Assembly (NCBI GenBank): GCA_029570205.1
Contig: JAKQSI010000093.1
Location: 1-64,000 of the forward strand
Direction of reading: 5' to 3'
Length of the DNA stretch: 64,000 nucleotides
DNA from: Candidatus Omnitrophota bacterium
GTDB taxonomy: Bacteria > Hinthialibacterota > Hinthialibacteria > Hinthialibacterales > JAKPRU01
The notes beneath the pieces were generated by a model. It saw only the letters and a program-made list of their open reading frames with translations, had not been told where the DNA came from and made no database searches. This document shows positions 1,570 through 55,639 of the stretch, piece after piece (position 1 is the first letter of the stretch; each line of letters opens with the position of its first letter). Made by a program: the position numbers and the translations under genes.

Positions 1570-3447
1570 TCAGCCCAAGTTGATAACCAGGAACCCACCC
1601 TGGATCAGCGCACGAATGCAGATCGCCACCCCCAACAACGTAATCAACACGGCCGCCACAATCGGCATCCCCAACCGAAAGAACACCCTCGCACTGCCTT
1701 CCTTGCGCTTGAAATGTTCGTCAAACCAGCGAAAGAACCGGTCCAGAAGAGTCTTGCATAACACCATAGAGATCCCCACCGCAATCAACACCGCCGCCAA
1801 TCCCACACTGAAAGAGATAATCAACGTCACTCCCAGGGCCAGTTTTCCATATCCCGCCCCAATCAGAAAGACGATCACCGCCCCCAAACATGGAACCATG
1901 CCGCCGGTGATTCCCAAGACCAGCAAATCCCACCAACTCGCATCCGCCGAGATTTCATGCCGATGGTAATGACCTGACACCCCATGCTCGTGAGAATGAA
2001 CAGGCCCGTGATCCCCGCCCTCAGCGTGGACATGAGAATGTGTGTCCCCATCGTGATGATGATCTATGTCGATGACCGATGCCCCCGAAACCTCCGCCAC
2101 TGCCTTTGCAAGATAATAGGTTCGGACACGTTTTACAATCATTGGGATTCCGATACCGATAACCATCAGGCCGCTCGCGATCTGCAAGAAGACGGTGGCT
2201 TTAGGAGTCAAAACACCCGCCGTCAGAGTCATCGCGATAATCCCCACCGCCAGTACCACAAACACATGGCTCAGGGTTACAATGATCCCCAAATACACCG
2301 CCTGAACCAGCCCCCTCCACAGGTGTCCCTGGGTCCCCACAAGATACGCCGCAACAATGGTTTTTCCGTGCCCCGGCGATAAGGCATGTGCGGCCCCGTA
2401 CATCATGGACAGCCCGATCATTACCAGCAGCGCGGTCGGGCCGACATTCTCCCGGTGAATTAAATCCGAAAACTTCCTTTCCGCTTCGCCCAGTCTCTGG
2501 GTGGCGCCGGAGGTGTCCGGTACCGGCTGTGTCGCGCCCGTCGGAAGAGAAGCAACGGCTCCTTCCTTCGGAATCGGAGCCGCCTGGGGAGGCTTTACCG
2601 GACTGCTGGGCGGAACAACGGTAAGATCCCGCGCAAGTTTGATATGGAATATGTGGTAGTTTCCTTCGGAATCCGGGAGAAGAGGCTCCCTCGGAACCAG
2701 GTCGAAAGGCAGGTACGGATCGAGCGCGGAGAACTGTGTCGGCAGCGCGTGATACTCACCCACAGGATTCCCGGTCTTCTTGACTGTGAAACGAACATCC
2801 CGCGTATCTACAAAGAACCAGGATTGCTCGAAATCGGAAACCGGGCGCGTGATACCGGTTCCCGGGTCGGGCACAAATCCCACATCCGACACCGCATACT
2901 CCGGTGACCATAACAGGCGAACATAACACCTTCCGAATCGGTCGGCATAAGTCCAATTTTCGTAGTGAAACTCTTTCCCATCCGCTGTCGCCGGAAATGT
3001 TGCCTCAAGCCGCAGGATAAATTGAAGACAAGTTACACGCGCCACGCCCTGAGACATGCGTGGCGTGCACCCTTTCAGTTCAAAGGGTATTTTCTCCTCG
3101 CCGACGGTGAGATGATAATTCGGGATAATGGTCTCGACTAACGCATCCAGGTAAGGATTCAGCTCTGTCGGCGGGACAATACGATCTTCATTCGCGTCAA
3201 TAATAGAGAATTGTTCAAAAGACGGAACCTCGGCAAAATCTACCAACGCATGATGAACGATCTTGTCACCGACCAGTTCGAGTACCACGGCCTGATTGAG
3301 TGTGAAGTTCCCCATCGGATGTGCGGAGAGAAGGGAAGGGAAGAAAAGAACGTAGCCGGCACAGGAAATCAGTAATCCCGTGCCGGCTATTCGTGACAGG
3401 CAAATTGAGGAGAATGCAGGTCCTCTGGAATCACTCAATGGTCTCAT
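1570..3447 (-). CDS. NicO-family nickel/cobalt transporter with exported N-terminal domain
   Basis: A 625-residue membrane protein. A signal-like hydrophobic stretch (about 20-41) ends in LSA-HP. It is followed by a roughly 250-residue extracytoplasmic domain, a Pro-rich linker (about 278-315) and a C-terminal transporter domain with about six membrane segments. The NicO signature GAAHALSPGHGKT lies at about 351-363. A His-rich loop (DHHHDGDTHSHVH and more His to about 498) between membrane segments is typical of RcnA-type Ni/Co transporters and probably binds metal. In many bacteria the exported part and the NicO part are separate proteins; here they are one chain. It sits alone, with no urease or hydrogenase genes near, which favours metal export or homeostasis. 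The direction of transport is inference. Confidence 0.85.
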   Translation of the reverse strand: MRPLSDSRGPAFSSICLSRIAGTGLLISCAGYVLFFPSLLSAHPMGNFTLNQAVVLELVGDKIVHHALVDFAEVPSFEQFSIIDANEDRIVPPTELNPYLDALVETIIPNYHLTVGEEKIPFELKGCTPRMSQGVARVTCLQFILRLEATFPATADGKEFHYENWTYADRFGRCYVRLLWSPEYAVSDVGFVPDPGTGITRPVSDFEQSWFFVDTRDVRFTVKKTGNPVGEYHALPTQFSALDPYLPFDLVPREPLLPDSEGNYHIFHIKLARDLTVVPPSSPVKPPQAAPIPKEGAVASLPTGATQPVPDTSGATQRLGEAERKFSDLIHRENVGPTALLVMIGLSMMYGAAHALSPGHGKTIVAAYLVGTQGHLWRGLVQAVYLGIIVTLSHVFVVLAVGIIAMTLTAGVLTPKATVFLQIASGLMVIGIGIPMIVKRVRTYYLAKAVAEVSGASVIDIDHHHDGDTHSHVHAEGGDHGPVHSHEHGVSGHYHRHEISADASWWDLLVLGITGGMVPCLGAVIVFLIGAGYGKLALGVTLIISFSVGLAAVLIAVGISMVLCKTLLDRFFRWFDEHFKRKEGSARVFFRLGMPIVAAVLITLLGVAICIRALIQGGFLVINLG

Positions 3448-3527
3448 TCATATAACCAGCTAATCGACATAGTGCCAGAAACACATTTCATCCCATACAC
3501 ACCATGGCGGGTAGTAACCATCCATCC

Positions 3528-4985
3528 TCACGCATGGATGTATGTCTCCCACTCCAGGCCGGGAAGATCGCGGAGATCCTCTTCTTCCTCCATGGCAATG
3601 CGGATGTCCTTGAATCCACAGAACCGGCGAAGGTCCGAGTAATGATCTCCGTAAAAGACTACACGGTGCAACCCGCACGAGTAGTTGCTGAGAATCCTTT
3701 GTGCGTTCTTGACTTGAGTAACGACTTTTGTTTTGCAGCCGCGATCCGAGTCGGGACTGTCGATGATCGTGCCTGTCGAGTACAGCATAATGTTGTTGTT
3801 GATCAGCCGGGCCAGGGTCATCGGTTGACCTTTGCGCATTCTCACTTGCAGGGAGACGCTCTGCGAATCCTCGTGATGGCATCGGATGTCATACCGGCAC
3901 TGCTCGCCGTCGATCCCGTCCATCATAATCGGCGCAACACAGTGAGCGTGAATAATCGTATTGTTGGAAAGGTTGATTACCGGGTCGCTGATAAAACCGG
4001 GTTTGCCGGTCAGGTACAGAAAGATCAGGTGTGTAATGGTCGACTTGATATCCGCCTCGCAGACTCCCCCAAGTCCCATGCTCGATAGACGGGAGAATCC
4101 GAGACATGGGTACTCATATCCCTTCTGAACCAATCCCATACCCAGACAATTGATTGTAATCGCATCGGCTCCCTCCTGCGTCAGAAGATCTCTCATTGCC
4201 AAGTACATTTTCGAGGCGCCGAAAACCTGTTTTTCTGTCGGTTCGAGGATTTTTTCCGCTTCGCGAATCCAGCGTTCGGCATCCTCCTTTGCCTCGGCTT
4301 CGTTTACTTTGTCGTGTACCGCTTTCAGGTCATCCAGGTAGATGGTTTGGATAACCGTCCCGAATTTGCTCTGAATCCCCTCGGCATACGCGGGATCGAT
4401 TTCACTGCCCATGAGGTACAGTACTTTCGCTTCCTTCATGCGATGGACGGCACGGAGCGGCCGAACCGCCGCCGCCAGGTCGGTGAAATCGCTGCTCGGC
4501 AAGATGTCGATCTTCATCCCTTTCCGCTGCATTGGAGCAATAATGTGCCACTCATGTCCGGCGTAGGGTGTGGTGAACACCATTACCGGTACGTTGAGTT
4601 CCGTGAGTTTGTGCAGGTATCCACCGGTTCCGAGCGCCAGATGAATGGCCAGAACACCATCTACATCCTTGAATTTCTCCATCACTCCCGGCATCTGGTC
4701 TTGCGAATAAACCAGGCCACCCTCGACAAACTCGATATCCGCCAGCGCGGGGGCCAGCTTGCCGAACTCAGCCTCGAAGGTCCGAACCTCCTCGTTGAGA
4801 TCGAGAACCGTTTTCGGCCAGCCCGGGTACGGATTCCCCAAATAAACCTTCCCGACTTTTGTCTGGGTCTTGCCGCTCGGGATCGGTAGCGGGGACGCCA
4901 GGGCACTCGCTTCAACCGGACGCATCAGGTTCGCCAGGCAAATCGTCCCCATTGTGGTTGCTCCAAGAAACTCTCGCCTTCTCAT
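3528..4985 (-). CDS. Tat-exported L-fucose/arabinose isomerase-like protein
   Basis: 485 residues starting MRRREFLGATTMG, a twin-arginine-type signal followed by a hydrophobic stretch and an Ala-rich cleavage region near residue 28. The body looks like the L-fucose isomerase fold: substrate-handling segments (ATTEMPT-like LALGTGG, VFTTPYAGHEW), then a C-terminal domain with NLSNNTIIHAHCVAP and DGEQCRYDIRCHHED, where family members place sugar and metal ligands. Fucose isomerases are normally cytoplasmic, so export is odd and suggests a changed role, perhaps a binding protein or an isomerase of the outer compartment. The upstream ribosome site is AAAGGAGAT. It precedes the NicO gene on the same strand. 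Exact substrate unknown. Confidence 0.7.
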   Translation of the reverse strand: MRRREFLGATTMGTICLANLMRPVEASALASPLPIPSGKTQTKVGKVYLGNPYPGWPKTVLDLNEEVRTFEAEFGKLAPALADIEFVEGGLVYSQDQMPGVMEKFKDVDGVLAIHLALGTGGYLHKLTELNVPVMVFTTPYAGHEWHIIAPMQRKGMKIDILPSSDFTDLAAAVRPLRAVHRMKEAKVLYLMGSEIDPAYAEGIQSKFGTVIQTIYLDDLKAVHDKVNEAEAKEDAERWIREAEKILEPTEKQVFGASKMYLAMRDLLTQEGADAITINCLGMGLVQKGYEYPCLGFSRLSSMGLGGVCEADIKSTITHLIFLYLTGKPGFISDPVINLSNNTIIHAHCVAPIMMDGIDGEQCRYDIRCHHEDSQSVSLQVRMRKGQPMTLARLINNNIMLYSTGTIIDSPDSDRGCKTKVVTQVKNAQRILSNYSCGLHRVVFYGDHYSDLRRFCGFKDIRIAMEEEEDLRDLPGLEWETYIHA

Positions 4986-51031: not shown

Positions 51032-51464
51032 GTTTACTGCGCCTCCACCTGTGGTTCCTTGACAACATGCTACCTGCCCCACTTCCTCGTTGCCGACCGC
51101 GTTTTCCTGGGATTACAATCGCGGCGGATGGGAGATTTTCGTCTATTCGGTTCCGACAGGGAGAGGTTCATGTTCGCTGTCAGTAAAGCCAAATGGTTCT
51201 TGCCCTTACGACCGCACAAGGCTTACCTTATTGCCGAAAAGCAGGATTCCGCGACCGCCCCATGATTCCGAGCGCGGAAATACAGGCCCAGCGGGGACGT
51301 TTACAAGAGGGCACAGGATCAGCTGACTGCGGAAAGTAACGGCCGGAATGAAATTCGTGGGCAGAAGGGAACGGTGGAGCGGATTGAATTAAAGGGACTG
51401 AAAACGGTGTGAATAGGAGGAACACGTTGCGGAATGGTGTGATAATGCTTGTGGAGAATACGGC
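51032..51464. other. Intergenic region upstream of the HATPase cassette
   Basis: 433 bases. A plus-strand frame after a TGA at 51263-51265 encodes 48 residues without a start and ends at 51412. It is hydrophilic, reads like protein (GDVYKRAQDQLTAES, VERIELKGLK) and may be the end of a lost gene. Another short frame starts at ATG 51171. No terminator was found after secA. The cassette promoter should be in the last 100 bases, but I see no strong pair of boxes. Confidence 0.4.
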
Positions 51465-52262
51465 ATGAGAATCCTATTGGGACAAATTCGTCACAACCAG
51501 GAGGGCTTCGAGACCCTTGTGTCCCTATTTGCGCAAACGATGCATTGTTATTGGGAGAACATTGAGATTGACATGAGCGCAACAGATTGGTTTGATGCCG
51601 ACATGTGCGCGGCGTTGGGCGCGCTTCTTTACAGCCTTGGCCAGAATCTGAACACGGTTGCATTAACACGTGTTCCGGTCAGAGTTGAAAAGAGCCTATC
51701 AAAAAACGGTTTTCTTAGTCTGTACGGGCACAAGGAGATTCCGGATCGTTGGGGAACGACAATTCCCTATAAGCGTTTTGATGTCAAAGACGATCGTTAT
51801 TTCGCTCAATATTTGGAAACGGAATACATCTGCCGCTCGGAGATTTCCGTCATGTCGCCCGGACTGTTGAAAAGGTTCCGTGAAAGCATCTTTGAGATAT
51901 TCAGCAACGCCGTATTGCATTCGCAAACACTGATGGGTATTTTCAGTTGCGGACAGTTCTTTCCTACTCGGAATCGTCTTGATTTTTCCGTAGCAGACTT
52001 GGGGATCGGTATCTGCCGGAATGTGAGAGAAAATGCCGGGTTGGATCTCTCACCCGAAGATGCAATTATATGGGCAACCCAGGAGTGCAATACGACCAAA
52101 CGGGGGCCGATTCCTGGTGGACTGGGCTTAAAACTGCTCGGAGAATTCATCGACATGAACAGCGGTCGTATTCAGATTGTTTCGGACGCCGGGTACTGGC
52201 AACGGGAGGAAGGTAAAATCCATACCGCCCGATTGAGCCGACCTTTCCTGGTACGGTGGTGA
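51465..52262 (+). CDS. HATPase protein with STAS-like N-terminal domain
   Basis: 265 residues. Residues about 1-90 look STAS-like (IEIDMSATDWFDADMCAAL). Residues about 120-255 are a GHKL ATPase of the anti-sigma-factor/histidine-kinase type: N-box ESIFEIFSNAVLHS with Asn148, G1 box VADLGIGICRNV with Asp178, and G2 box GGLGLKLLGEFI near 218-229. There is no phospho-acceptor His domain and no membrane segment, so it resembles SpoIIAB/RsbW switch kinases more than sensor kinases. It is first of a cassette with a DUF4325 gene and a PIN gene. Base composition looks more AT-rich than secA. Partner-switch function is inference. Confidence 0.75.
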   Translation: MRILLGQIRHNQEGFETLVSLFAQTMHCYWENIEIDMSATDWFDADMCAALGALLYSLGQNLNTVALTRVPVRVEKSLSKNGFLSLYGHKEIPDRWGTTIPYKRFDVKDDRYFAQYLETEYICRSEISVMSPGLLKRFRESIFEIFSNAVLHSQTLMGIFSCGQFFPTRNRLDFSVADLGIGICRNVRENAGLDLSPEDAIIWATQECNTTKRGPIPGGLGLKLLGEFIDMNSGRIQIVSDAGYWQREEGKIHTARLSRPFLVRW

Positions 52263-52275
52263 GTACGGTGGTGAG
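52252..52275. repeat. Tandem duplication of 12 bases across the HATPase stop
   Basis: TACGGTGGTGAG occurs twice in direct succession (52252-52263 and 52264-52275). The first copy contains the TGA stop of the HATPase gene; the second repeats the same codons in the same frame. It looks like a recent slippage event. Confidence 0.85.
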
Positions 52276-52348
52276 TGTAGAAATCAATACGGCAGATACG
52301 CCGTCCTATACGCTGTCCTCCGAATTGTCAAAAGCCAATATGTTCTGA
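52271..52348 (+). CDS. Possible 25-residue micro-ORF between HATPase and DUF4325 genes
   Basis: GTG 52271 opens a frame ending at TGA 52346-52348, ten bases before the DUF4325 ATG. It would encode 25 residues rich in Ser/Thr (EINTADTPSYTLSSELSKAN). The frame is open upstream to at least 52250, so it might instead be a frame-shifted end of the HATPase. GGTGG ahead of the GTG is a weak ribosome site. Only its neat fit to the gap supports it. Confidence 0.25.
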   Translation: MSVEINTADTPSYTLSSELSKANMF

Positions 52349-52358
52349 GGTATTTGTT

Positions 52359-52724
52359 ATGGAACAGAAGATGGTGCTTTCATTGTATGAAATTGTCGGT
52401 GAACCGCTTTGTGTGGCCTCGGACGACGGGCAAAAGGTATATGACCGCCTGGAGGCTGTTCTAAAGAAAGGAGAAAATGTCACGCTTTCATTCCGAAACG
52501 TTACGACCTTGACTTCGGCGTTCTTGAATTCCGCAATAGGCCAGTTGTATGGTACATTCAGTGAGGAGCAATTGAGATCGCTTCTTGAGGTCCAAGACAT
52601 TCAGCAGGGCGATCTTGTGTTATTATCTCGCGTCGTTGAGACAGCCAAACAATACTTCAAAGATCCGAATAAATTCAATCGGGCAGTCCAGGAAACGCTG
52701 GGGGATGGAAATGACGGAGTATAG
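52359..52724 (+). CDS. STAS-like DUF4325 protein
   Basis: 121 residues. The pattern VTLSFRNVTTLTSAFLNSAIGQLYG (about residues 41-65, quoted in two parts in family descriptions) is the core of DUF4325, a STAS-like fold with the same layout as anti-sigma-factor antagonists such as SpoIIAA. The conserved region around SAFLNSA would face the ATPase partner. Ribosome site is TGAGG. It overlaps the PIN gene by 14 bases. Its role as the antagonist or substrate of the neighbouring HATPase is inferred from fold and position. Confidence 0.8.
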   Translation: MEQKMVLSLYEIVGEPLCVASDDGQKVYDRLEAVLKKGENVTLSFRNVTTLTSAFLNSAIGQLYGTFSEEQLRSLLEVQDIQQGDLVLLSRVVETAKQYFKDPNKFNRAVQETLGDGNDGV

Positions 52725-53250
52725 GCCGGAAGAAATTACAACGTGTAATTTTAGGGCTTCGGATTCATTGCTGTTGGATGCTAATGTTTGGCTGTTTGTC
52801 TACGGCCCGCATCAACCGGGAGATAGAAAAGTCGCTGTTTACTCGAATGCCCTCAAGAGAATGCTCGTTGCGGAAAGCCGCATCTATGTTGATGTATTGG
52901 TCGTTTCGGAATTCATCAACAGGTACGCCGGATTGAAATGGGAGATCGAACATGAGGTATTCCCCAGTTTCAAGGAATTCCGCAAGAGCAAGGAGTTCAA
53001 GCCTCTCGCTCAAGAAATTGCTGACGCCGTGAAACGGGCGCTGAGGCATTGTACGCGGATCGAGAGCGGTTTTGAATCTCCTGCGGTTGACTCTTTGATT
53101 GACGAGTATTCAATGGGCTGTTTCGATTTCAATGACCAGATTCTTACAGCCCTGTGCAAAGAGAAAGGTCTTAAATTGGTCACAGACGATGGGGATTTCC
53201 GTACACGGGAGATTCCTATTGTCACTGGAAACAGGCACTTGCTGGCTTAG
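52711..53250 (+). CDS. PIN-domain protein of the HATPase/DUF4325 cassette
   Basis: 179 residues from ATG 52711 (GGGGGA upstream); ATG 52705 is an alternative and the open frame before that lies inside DUF4325. PIN acidic residues are all present: Asp23 in LLLDANVWLF, Glu67 in VVSEFINRY, Asp139/Asp142 in CFDFNDQILTAL and Asp159/160 in VTDDGDF. Members cleave RNA, or more rarely DNA, with Mg. At 179 residues it is longer than typical VapC (about 130), with an insert of helices around 75-115. No VapB-like antitoxin is adjacent, so the STAS/HATPase pair may provide control. Confidence 0.82.
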   Translation: MTEYRPEEITTCNFRASDSLLLDANVWLFVYGPHQPGDRKVAVYSNALKRMLVAESRIYVDVLVVSEFINRYAGLKWEIEHEVFPSFKEFRKSKEFKPLAQEIADAVKRALRHCTRIESGFESPAVDSLIDEYSMGCFDFNDQILTALCKEKGLKLVTDDGDFRTREIPIVTGNRHLLA

Positions 53251-55589: not shown

Positions 55590-55609
55590 GACAGGCACGG
55601 AGGCCTGTC
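55590..55609. repeat. Intergenic hairpin, CAGGC family
   Basis: Arms GACAGGC (55590-55596) and GCCTGTC (55603-55609) enclose six bases. Another hairpin follows 10 bases later. Both lie between the HAD start and the GGDEF end, where only one terminator is expected. Confidence 0.55.
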
Positions 55610-55619
55610 CCACCAGTAG

Positions 55620-55639
55620 GCCAGGCGTCCCTGCCTGGC
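55620..55639. repeat. Intergenic hairpin after the GGDEF gene
   Basis: Arms GCCAGGC (55620-55626) and GCCTGGC (55633-55639) around GTCCCT. On the plus strand it is followed by AGCTACCTTTCTTTTTCC, so it could terminate transcription in the plus direction, where no gene ends nearby; a repeat is as likely. Confidence 0.45.

What the first reader, a model, noticed from the sequence alone, without database searches (positions are those of the whole stretch)
51465..53250. HATPase + DUF4325 (STAS-like) + PIN nuclease cassette: a possible partner-switching nuclease system
Three genes lie head to tail with tight or overlapping ends. Seen: a GHKL ATPase with a STAS-like N-terminus and complete N, G1 and G2 boxes; a stand-alone STAS-like DUF4325 protein; and a PIN protein with all acidic residues. 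Known: in SpoIIAB/SpoIIAA and RsbW/RsbV, a GHKL kinase and a STAS protein form a phosphorylation switch, and PIN domains are usually RNases held by an antitoxin. Inference: here the STAS/HATPase pair may take the antitoxin's place and release or hold the nuclease on a signal, as in stress response or phage defence. Lines I counted in this cassette have about 42-50% GC against about 55% in secA, which suggests transfer. It sits between secA and housekeeping genes with a gene remnant upstream.
Basis: partly seen in the sequence, partly recalled or inferred. Interest (0 to 1): 0.75.

Follow-up and report, generated by a model that had tools for sequence, protein, structure and literature searches.

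The report
Decaying VapKSC anti-phage toxin switch
The three genes are a decaying copy of VapKSC, a recently published anti-phage toxin system in which a kinase releases an RNA-cutting toxin from its antitoxin; DNA scars show that this copy came from inside a restriction-modification operon, where most of its close relatives still sit.

Summary
It is not a new system. The DUF4325 and PIN profiles match the two chains of PDB 9z7o, VapS (E 2e-29) and VapC (E 1e-34). These come from vapKSC, described in June 2026 (PMC13373217): kinase VapK phosphorylates antitoxin VapS and frees the PIN toxin VapC; the operon protects E. coli from a phage.

The window copy looks like a relict. A one-base frameshift removes the conserved last 29 residues of VapK; VapS and VapC are intact. 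A sister genome has lost all but the last 31 codons of vapC from the same site.

What I did not find in the paper: in 17 of 20 testable close relatives, vapK starts on the stop codon of a Type III methyltransferase gene (mod), or of a remnant of it; res follows in 12. Leftover mod tails and res heads suggest that accessory defence modules stack in the mod-res gap. The window keeps such a mod tail. VapS proteins without a kinase, some on phage contigs, mostly lack the phospho-acceptor Ser/Thr that 53 of 54 kinase-linked ones keep.

The parts
51170..51412 (+). remnant of a CHASE2 adenylate/guanylate cyclase gene with large internal deletions; intact (634 aa) in the sister genome
   Evidence: blastn and ORF comparison with sister contig L085; Pfam CHASE2 4e-44 and Guanylate_cyc 6e-25 in the sister
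51431..51468 (+). remnant of the 3' end of a Type III methyltransferase (mod) gene, its stop overlapping the vapK start (ATGA)
   Evidence: best of 946 ATGA/GTGA sites in the window against a mod-tail weight matrix (0.8; next -16.9); the sister genome has a 17/19 match to the mod tail at the same site
51465..52262 (+). vapK: STAS-like N-terminus plus GHKL kinase, frame broken at about 52244-52250
   Evidence: profile A1 1-261 in this frame; best solved-structure matches of a relative's model are SpoIIAB (Z 10.9)
52248..52348 (+). displaced conserved C-terminal codons of vapK (last GHKL strand and ...EINTADT.SY...F tail) in another frame
52251..52276 (+). 12-bp tandem duplication inside the displaced tail
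52359..52724 (+). vapS: DUF4325 STAS-like antitoxin, Ser53 the likely phospho-acceptor
   Evidence: Pfam 1.3e-17; PDB 9z7o_A VapS E 7e-14 single sequence, 2e-29 profile; S/T at 53 in 53 of 54 kinase-linked copies
52705..53250 (+). vapC: PIN-domain nuclease toxin, overlapping the end of vapS by 20 nt (alternative start 52711)
   Evidence: Pfam 1.2e-8; PDB 9z7o_C VapC E 1e-34 profile; acidic residues D25, E69, D141, D144, D162, D164 invariant in 21 relatives

Best explanation
The cassette is a degenerate chromosomal copy of VapKSC. In the working system VapS binds the VapC RNase and blocks it. A signal, thought to be single-stranded DNA from damage or phage infection, activates the SpoIIAB-like kinase VapK, which phosphorylates a Ser/Thr of VapS (Ser53 here). 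VapS then lets go of VapC, which stops growth. The window copy came out of a Type III restriction-modification operon (mod-vapK-vapS-vapC-res), of which only the last codons of mod remain. Its VapK has lost the last strand of the kinase domain and the conserved tail, so VapS probably stays unphosphorylated and VapC stays locked. Shown here: gene order, homology, conserved residues, the frameshift in this assembly, the mod tail, and partial loss in a sister genome. Shown by others for the Escherichia homologue: VapS-VapC complex, antitoxin action, effect of S48E, phage protection. Inferred: that this copy once worked the same way and is now inactive.
For: VapS and VapC profiles match both chains of PDB 9z7o. 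Same gene order in bacteria of many phyla, a Deinococcus plasmid and prophages. The kinase model's best solved-structure matches are SpoIIAB (Z 10.9, 135 residues, 2.8 A); the PIN model's are VapC toxins (Z 12.9). Ser/Thr at VapS position 53 in 53 of 54 kinase-linked copies. Continuous VapK C-terminus in relatives against a frameshift here. Mod tail at the vapK start in the window and the sister genome. Published mechanism.
Against: The frameshift rests on one draft assembly (131 contigs) and could be an error. Window VapC is only distantly similar to the Escherichia one by single sequence (E 0.005). Fused-chain AlphaFold2 did not establish an interface (pTM 0.78 and 0.67). The published ssDNA-sensing residue of VapK was not mapped here.
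Confidence: 0.88

Rival explanations
1. The vapK frameshift is a sequencing or assembly error and the window holds a working stand-alone VapKSC system.
For: One-base difference in a draft metagenome-type assembly (131 contigs); the rest of VapK is about 60-75% identical to relatives and carries all nucleotide-binding motifs; VapS and VapC are intact.
Against: A 12-bp duplication sits beside the frameshift; the upstream cyclase is also decayed; VapK is broken or absent with VapS and VapC intact in several other genomes (L003, L011, L014, L025, L058, L100); the sister genome has lost the cassette.
Confidence: 0.25
2. The cassette acts only as an addiction module that stabilises its DNA, not as defence.
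For: Toxin-antitoxin pair, patchy distribution (14 of 386 genomes for VapS), presence on a plasmid and in prophages.
Against: A kinase-operated antitoxin is a signal switch rather than a stability switch; the Escherichia homologue protects against a phage and needs kinase, phospho-site and nuclease; most close relatives lie in restriction operons.
Confidence: 0.08
3. The HATPase-STAS pair is a transcriptional regulator (CapK-CapS type) and the PIN gene is merely its downstream target.
For: CapK-CapS is the nearest regulatory relative.
Against: CapS carries a C-terminal winged helix; this VapS is 121 aa with no room for one; VapS and VapC genes overlap; VapS-VapC form a solved complex in the homologue.
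Confidence: 0.03

Closest known systems
VapKSC of Escherichia sp. E4736 (PMC13373217; PDB 9z7o)
   Same: Three genes in the same order; STAS+GHKL kinase without N-terminal HTH; small STAS protein with conserved Ser/Thr and short C-terminal region; VapC-like PIN with conserved acidic residues.
   Different: Distant in sequence; the window subfamily is mostly embedded in Type III R-M operons; the window VapK is frameshifted.
CapK-CapS (PMC13373217)
   Same: SpoIIAB-like kinase with STAS domain and a phosphorylated STAS partner.
   Different: CapS is a DNA-binding repressor with a winged helix and controls transcription; here the partner is a PIN toxin.
SpoIIAB/SpoIIAA and RsbW/RsbV
   Same: Fold of the kinase (SpoIIAB best structural match), N-box with E-x3-N, phosphorylated STAS partner.
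   Different: Target there is a sigma factor, and the kinase itself binds it; here the STAS protein holds a nuclease.
VapBC toxin-antitoxin systems
   Same: PIN toxin of the VapC fold (Z up to 12.9).
   Different: Antitoxin is a STAS protein under kinase control instead of a DNA-binding VapB.
PrrC/EcoprrI (from general knowledge, not tested)
   Same: A toxic RNase carried inside a restriction-modification locus.
   Different: PrrC is tied to a Type I system and held by the restriction complex; here Type III and a STAS antitoxin.

Membership tests
VapKSC | three-gene order kinase > STAS protein > PIN nuclease | tested here: met
VapKSC | kinase with N-terminal STAS-like and C-terminal GHKL domain, no HTH | tested here: met
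   profile of the first ~85 residues weakly matches RsbS and other STAS chains (E 0.01-0.03), GHKL part matches SpoIIAB; no room for an HTH in 265 aa
VapKSC | VapS homology with conserved Ser/Thr phospho-acceptor | tested here: met
   9z7o_A E 2e-29; Ser53 in the window; S/T in 53 of 54 kinase-linked copies
VapKSC | VapC homology with catalytic acidic residues | tested here: met
   9z7o_C E 1e-34; invariant acids
VapKSC | conserved aromatic residue for ssDNA in VapK (F54 of Escherichia VapK) | not tested
   Escherichia VapK sequence was not at hand to fix the equivalent position
VapKSC | VapC toxicity, VapS neutralisation, phage protection | not testable with these tools
   shown for the Escherichia homologue only
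working VapKSC (as opposed to membership by descent) | intact vapK reading frame | tested here: not met
   frame broken after residue 261 of 290; assembly error not excluded
Type III R-M-embedded VapKSC branch | mod 3' end overlapping the vapK start | tested here: met
   only a remnant of the mod tail in the window; complete, partial or tail-only mod in 17 of 20 relatives
Type III R-M-embedded VapKSC branch | mod and res genes present around the cassette | tested here: not met
   no Mod or Res match in the window or the rest of its 137-kb contig, so the window copy has left that context
CapK-CapS | CapS with C-terminal winged-helix DNA-binding domain | tested here: not met
   VapS is 121 aa, DUF4325 only

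The most novel reading that the evidence does not exclude
A branch of VapKSC is a built-in second line of Type III restriction operons: it is translated together with mod, senses single-stranded DNA made by restriction or phage, and fires VapC when restriction is not enough. The mod-res gap is a docking slot in which defence modules stack by recombination, leaving res-head/mod-tail scars. Kinase-less VapS proteins in phages and in other Type III operons are non-phosphorylatable antitoxins that block VapC.
Probability: 0.35. Interest if true: 0.7.

Novelty: new member of a known kind. Interest (0 to 1): 0.45.

Why it matters
VapKSC has just been described, from one Escherichia operon, with signal sensing by VapK untested biochemically. 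A branch translationally tied to a Type III methyltransferase suggests how restriction and a suicide nuclease could be coordinated, and it gives isolate-borne operons (for example Nitrosomonas nitrosa Nm90, L012) to test it. The loss of the phospho-acceptor in kinase-less VapS is a natural test of the kinase-substrate model and points to possible phage counter-defence.

Tried and rejected
PADLOC 2023, NCBIfam and Pfam alone gave no system. Literature search by DUF4325 gave nothing useful; the link came from the PDB sequence search. CapKS-type regulation rejected because VapS lacks a winged helix. Programmed frameshifting of vapK rejected: relatives read through in one frame. Interface test: in-frame natural fusions (stop codons read as Gly) of VapK-VapS and VapS-VapC from L017 gave high pLDDT (92.5, 90.4) but pTM 0.78 and 0.67, which separate domains could also give, so no interface is claimed. 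A first VapS-VapC alignment was misaligned and discarded. The S/T53 association is strong in raw counts (53 of 54 against 5 of 16, Fisher 2e-8), but the tree is too poorly resolved for a significant independent-pairs test (3 supported pairs). The STAS fold of VapS was not seen in the structure searches, which were filled by the other domain. Plasmid and phage record collections hold few close relatives.

Full report
Observation. The three ORFs exist at the stated places: an ATPase-like protein (51465-52262), a DUF4325 protein (52359-52724, Pfam E 1.3e-17) and a PIN protein (52705-53250, E 1.2e-8). The last two overlap by 20 nt. GC is 46-51% against about 53-58% in the flanks. The genome has one DUF4325 gene, and none was found in the 13 other genomes of its phylum.

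The gene order is a conserved unit. A search of 84,980 genomes with the DUF4325 protein gave 32 loci. tblastn and profile searches place the ATPase directly upstream and the PIN gene directly downstream in most of them, over many phyla: Nitrosomonas, Zeta- and Deltaproteobacteria, Sumerlaeota, Latescibacterota, Poribacteria, Caldilineaceae, Bryobacterales, Planctomycetota, cyanobacteria. The same triple lies on Deinococcus gobiensis plasmid P5 (L035), in Streptococcus prophage Javan172, where the PIN gene is unannotated (L036), in an unannotated gut-phage contig (L037) and in about a dozen and a half IMG/VR contigs. A broad sample had the DUF4325 profile in only 14 of 386 genomes, which is the patchy pattern of a mobile module.

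Identity. The DUF4325 profile matches PDB 9z7o chain A, 'Escherichia VapS' (E 2e-29), and the PIN profile matches chain C, 'Escherichia VapC' (E 1e-34; window VapS alone E 7e-14). The source paper (PMC13373217, EMBO J, June 2026) describes vapKSC: a CapK-like STAS+GHKL kinase VapK, an antitoxin VapS with an absolutely conserved Ser/Thr, and a VapC-like PIN toxin. In that work VapS and VapC form a 2:2 complex, VapS rescues VapC toxicity, S48E abolishes rescue and binding, and the operon gives about 2-log protection against phage Bas42, lost in VapC D28A, VapS S48A and VapK F54A. Of 289 instances, 36% lie near other immune genes. The authors could not test VapK biochemically. My own evidence agrees with that model. 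The predicted kinase of a relative matches SpoIIAB above every other GHKL protein (Z 10.9 against 8.5 or less). The PIN model matches VapC toxins (Z 12.9). Ser/Thr at VapS position 53 is present in 53 of 54 copies with a kinase gene.

State of the window copy. In relatives VapK has 290 residues and ends with ...PFPGTVVSVEINTADTxSYxLxSELxxxDIF, 8-12 nt before vapS. In the window the frame breaks after residue 261; the tail is present but in another frame and next to a 12-bp tandem duplication. The lost part holds the nearly invariant G263, T264, D274, Y278, E283 and F290. This may be decay or an assembly error. VapK is broken or absent with VapS and VapC intact in several other loci (L003, L011, L014, L025, L058, L100; L022 undetermined), VapC is broken with VapK and VapS intact in L016, L026 and L052, and I saw no locus with intact VapC and broken VapS. 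That fits VapS as the antitoxin, but the survey was mostly VapS-centred, so the absence is only suggestive.

History of the site. In a sister genome (same genus, L085) the same place holds an intact CHASE2 cyclase gene (Pfam 4e-44 and 6e-25), of which the window keeps fragments at 51170-51412. A DUF433-DUF5615 pair follows, and then the last 31 codons of vapC at 77% identity. The cassette was therefore at this site before the two species split, and the sister has lost nearly all of it.

Type III restriction context. In most close relatives the gene before vapK is a Type III methyltransferase (PADLOC MTase_III E 1e-114 and 3e-109 on two orphan-VapS loci of the same kind; Pfam N6_N4_Mtase on L002), and the gene after vapC, directly or after further modules, is the res subunit (PADLOC REase_III 6e-20; Pfam ResIII 4e-14). 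The mod stop overlaps the vapK start as GTGA or ATGA. Of 20 loci where the vapK start can be read, 17 have the mod gene or its tail abutting vapK (all except L005, L026, L032), and 12 have res sequence downstream. Divergent stand-alone copies (L035, L036, L095, L103) lack the tail. In the window the 45 bases before vapK are the best of 946 ATGA/GTGA sites against a mod-tail weight matrix (0.8; next -16.9), and the sister genome has a 17/19 match to the mod tail just after the cyclase stop. The window cassette thus most likely came out of a mod-vapKSC-res operon. No mod or res match remains in the window or the rest of its contig.

Scars. In L003 a 42-nt res head and a 69-nt mod tail (88% identical to the tail before vapK) lie between vapC and the real res. 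L006 has a second mod tail (85%) before a DUF488 protein (PADLOC candidate PDC-M19A). L013 and L017 have duplicated res heads. The simplest reading is that operons of the form mod-X-res fuse and lose the intervening res...mod, so that accessory modules pile up in the mod-res gap. Other modules in the same gap include an AAA_15 ATPase pair (PDC-M47A/B, also matching PD-T4-4_A) and HEC-01-like proteins. The paper's text has no mention of Type III systems; its supplementary tables were not available to me.

VapS without a kinase. In L018, L024, L027 and L030 a lone vapS sits between mod and res with other accessory genes. Lone vapS genes also lie on phage-like contigs L042, L043, L045, L047 and L051, and as the C-terminal part of a phage ATPase in L044; PHROG matches support phage origin for L043, L044 and L051. 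Among kinase-less copies only 5 of 16 keep Ser/Thr at position 53, while F55 and L63 stay invariant and G61 nearly so (Fisher 2e-8). The tree of this short protein is poorly resolved, so phylogenetic independence is not shown. A separate, distant DUF4325 family that is nearly core in another phylum keeps Ser/Thr (30 of 30) without a neighbouring kinase, so the rule is not universal.

Mechanism. For the working system I follow the published model: VapS holds VapC; activated VapK phosphorylates VapS; VapC is released. For this genome I infer that the switch is stuck with VapC held. For the embedded branch I propose, without test, that coupling to mod/res lets the nuclease act as a fallback when restriction produces or fails to clear single-stranded DNA.

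Structure tests. Natural in-frame fusions from L017, with stop codons read as glycine, were folded. VapK-VapS had pLDDT 92.5 and pTM 0.78; VapS-VapC had pLDDT 90.4 and pTM 0.67. These do not establish interfaces.

Verdict. The window copy is a probably inactive member of it. What may be new is the Type III-embedded branch with its scars, and the kinase-less VapS proteins.

Noticed in passing
L085 (sister genome contig), minus strand 3350-3945: A DUF433-DUF5615 pair (DUF5615 is PIN-like by general knowledge; likely toxin-antitoxin) occupies the place of the cassette in the sister species, just before the 31-codon vapC remnant.
   Followed up: partly
L003 4902-5007, L006 4933-5007, L013 5436-5778, L017 1134-1405 and 2802-3073: Duplicated res heads and mod tails between accessory modules of Type III R-M operons, reading as recombination scars of module stacking.
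   Followed up: partly
L018, L024, L027, L030, L016, L021, L029: Other candidate defence modules (PDC-M47A/B close to PD-T4-4, PDC-M19A with DUF488, HEC-01-like, AriA-like AAA proteins) sit in the same mod-res gap.
   Followed up: partly
L042, L043, L044, L045, L047, L051: Lone VapS homologues on phage-like contigs, one fused to a phage ATPase (L044), mostly without the phospho-acceptor Ser/Thr; possible antitoxin decoys.
   Followed up: partly
L108-L141 (phylum of G318): A stand-alone DUF4325 protein is found in 52 of 77 genomes of one phylum with no VapK or VapC within 1.5 kb; in about half of the examined loci a TPR-like protein and a SpoU/TrmL-like methyltransferase lie beside it (naming by eye). 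Function unknown.
   Followed up: partly
window 55603-55634 and L085 minus strand at about 4033-4069: A roughly 37-nt repeat-like sequence (GCCTGTCCCACCAGTRGGCC...) is shared between the sister's cassette site and another place in the window, where it also reads as part of a coding frame.
   Followed up: no
L036 6122-6649 (Streptococcus phage Javan172): The vapC gene is unannotated in the deposited record, which lists only a 39-aa ORF there.
   Followed up: yes
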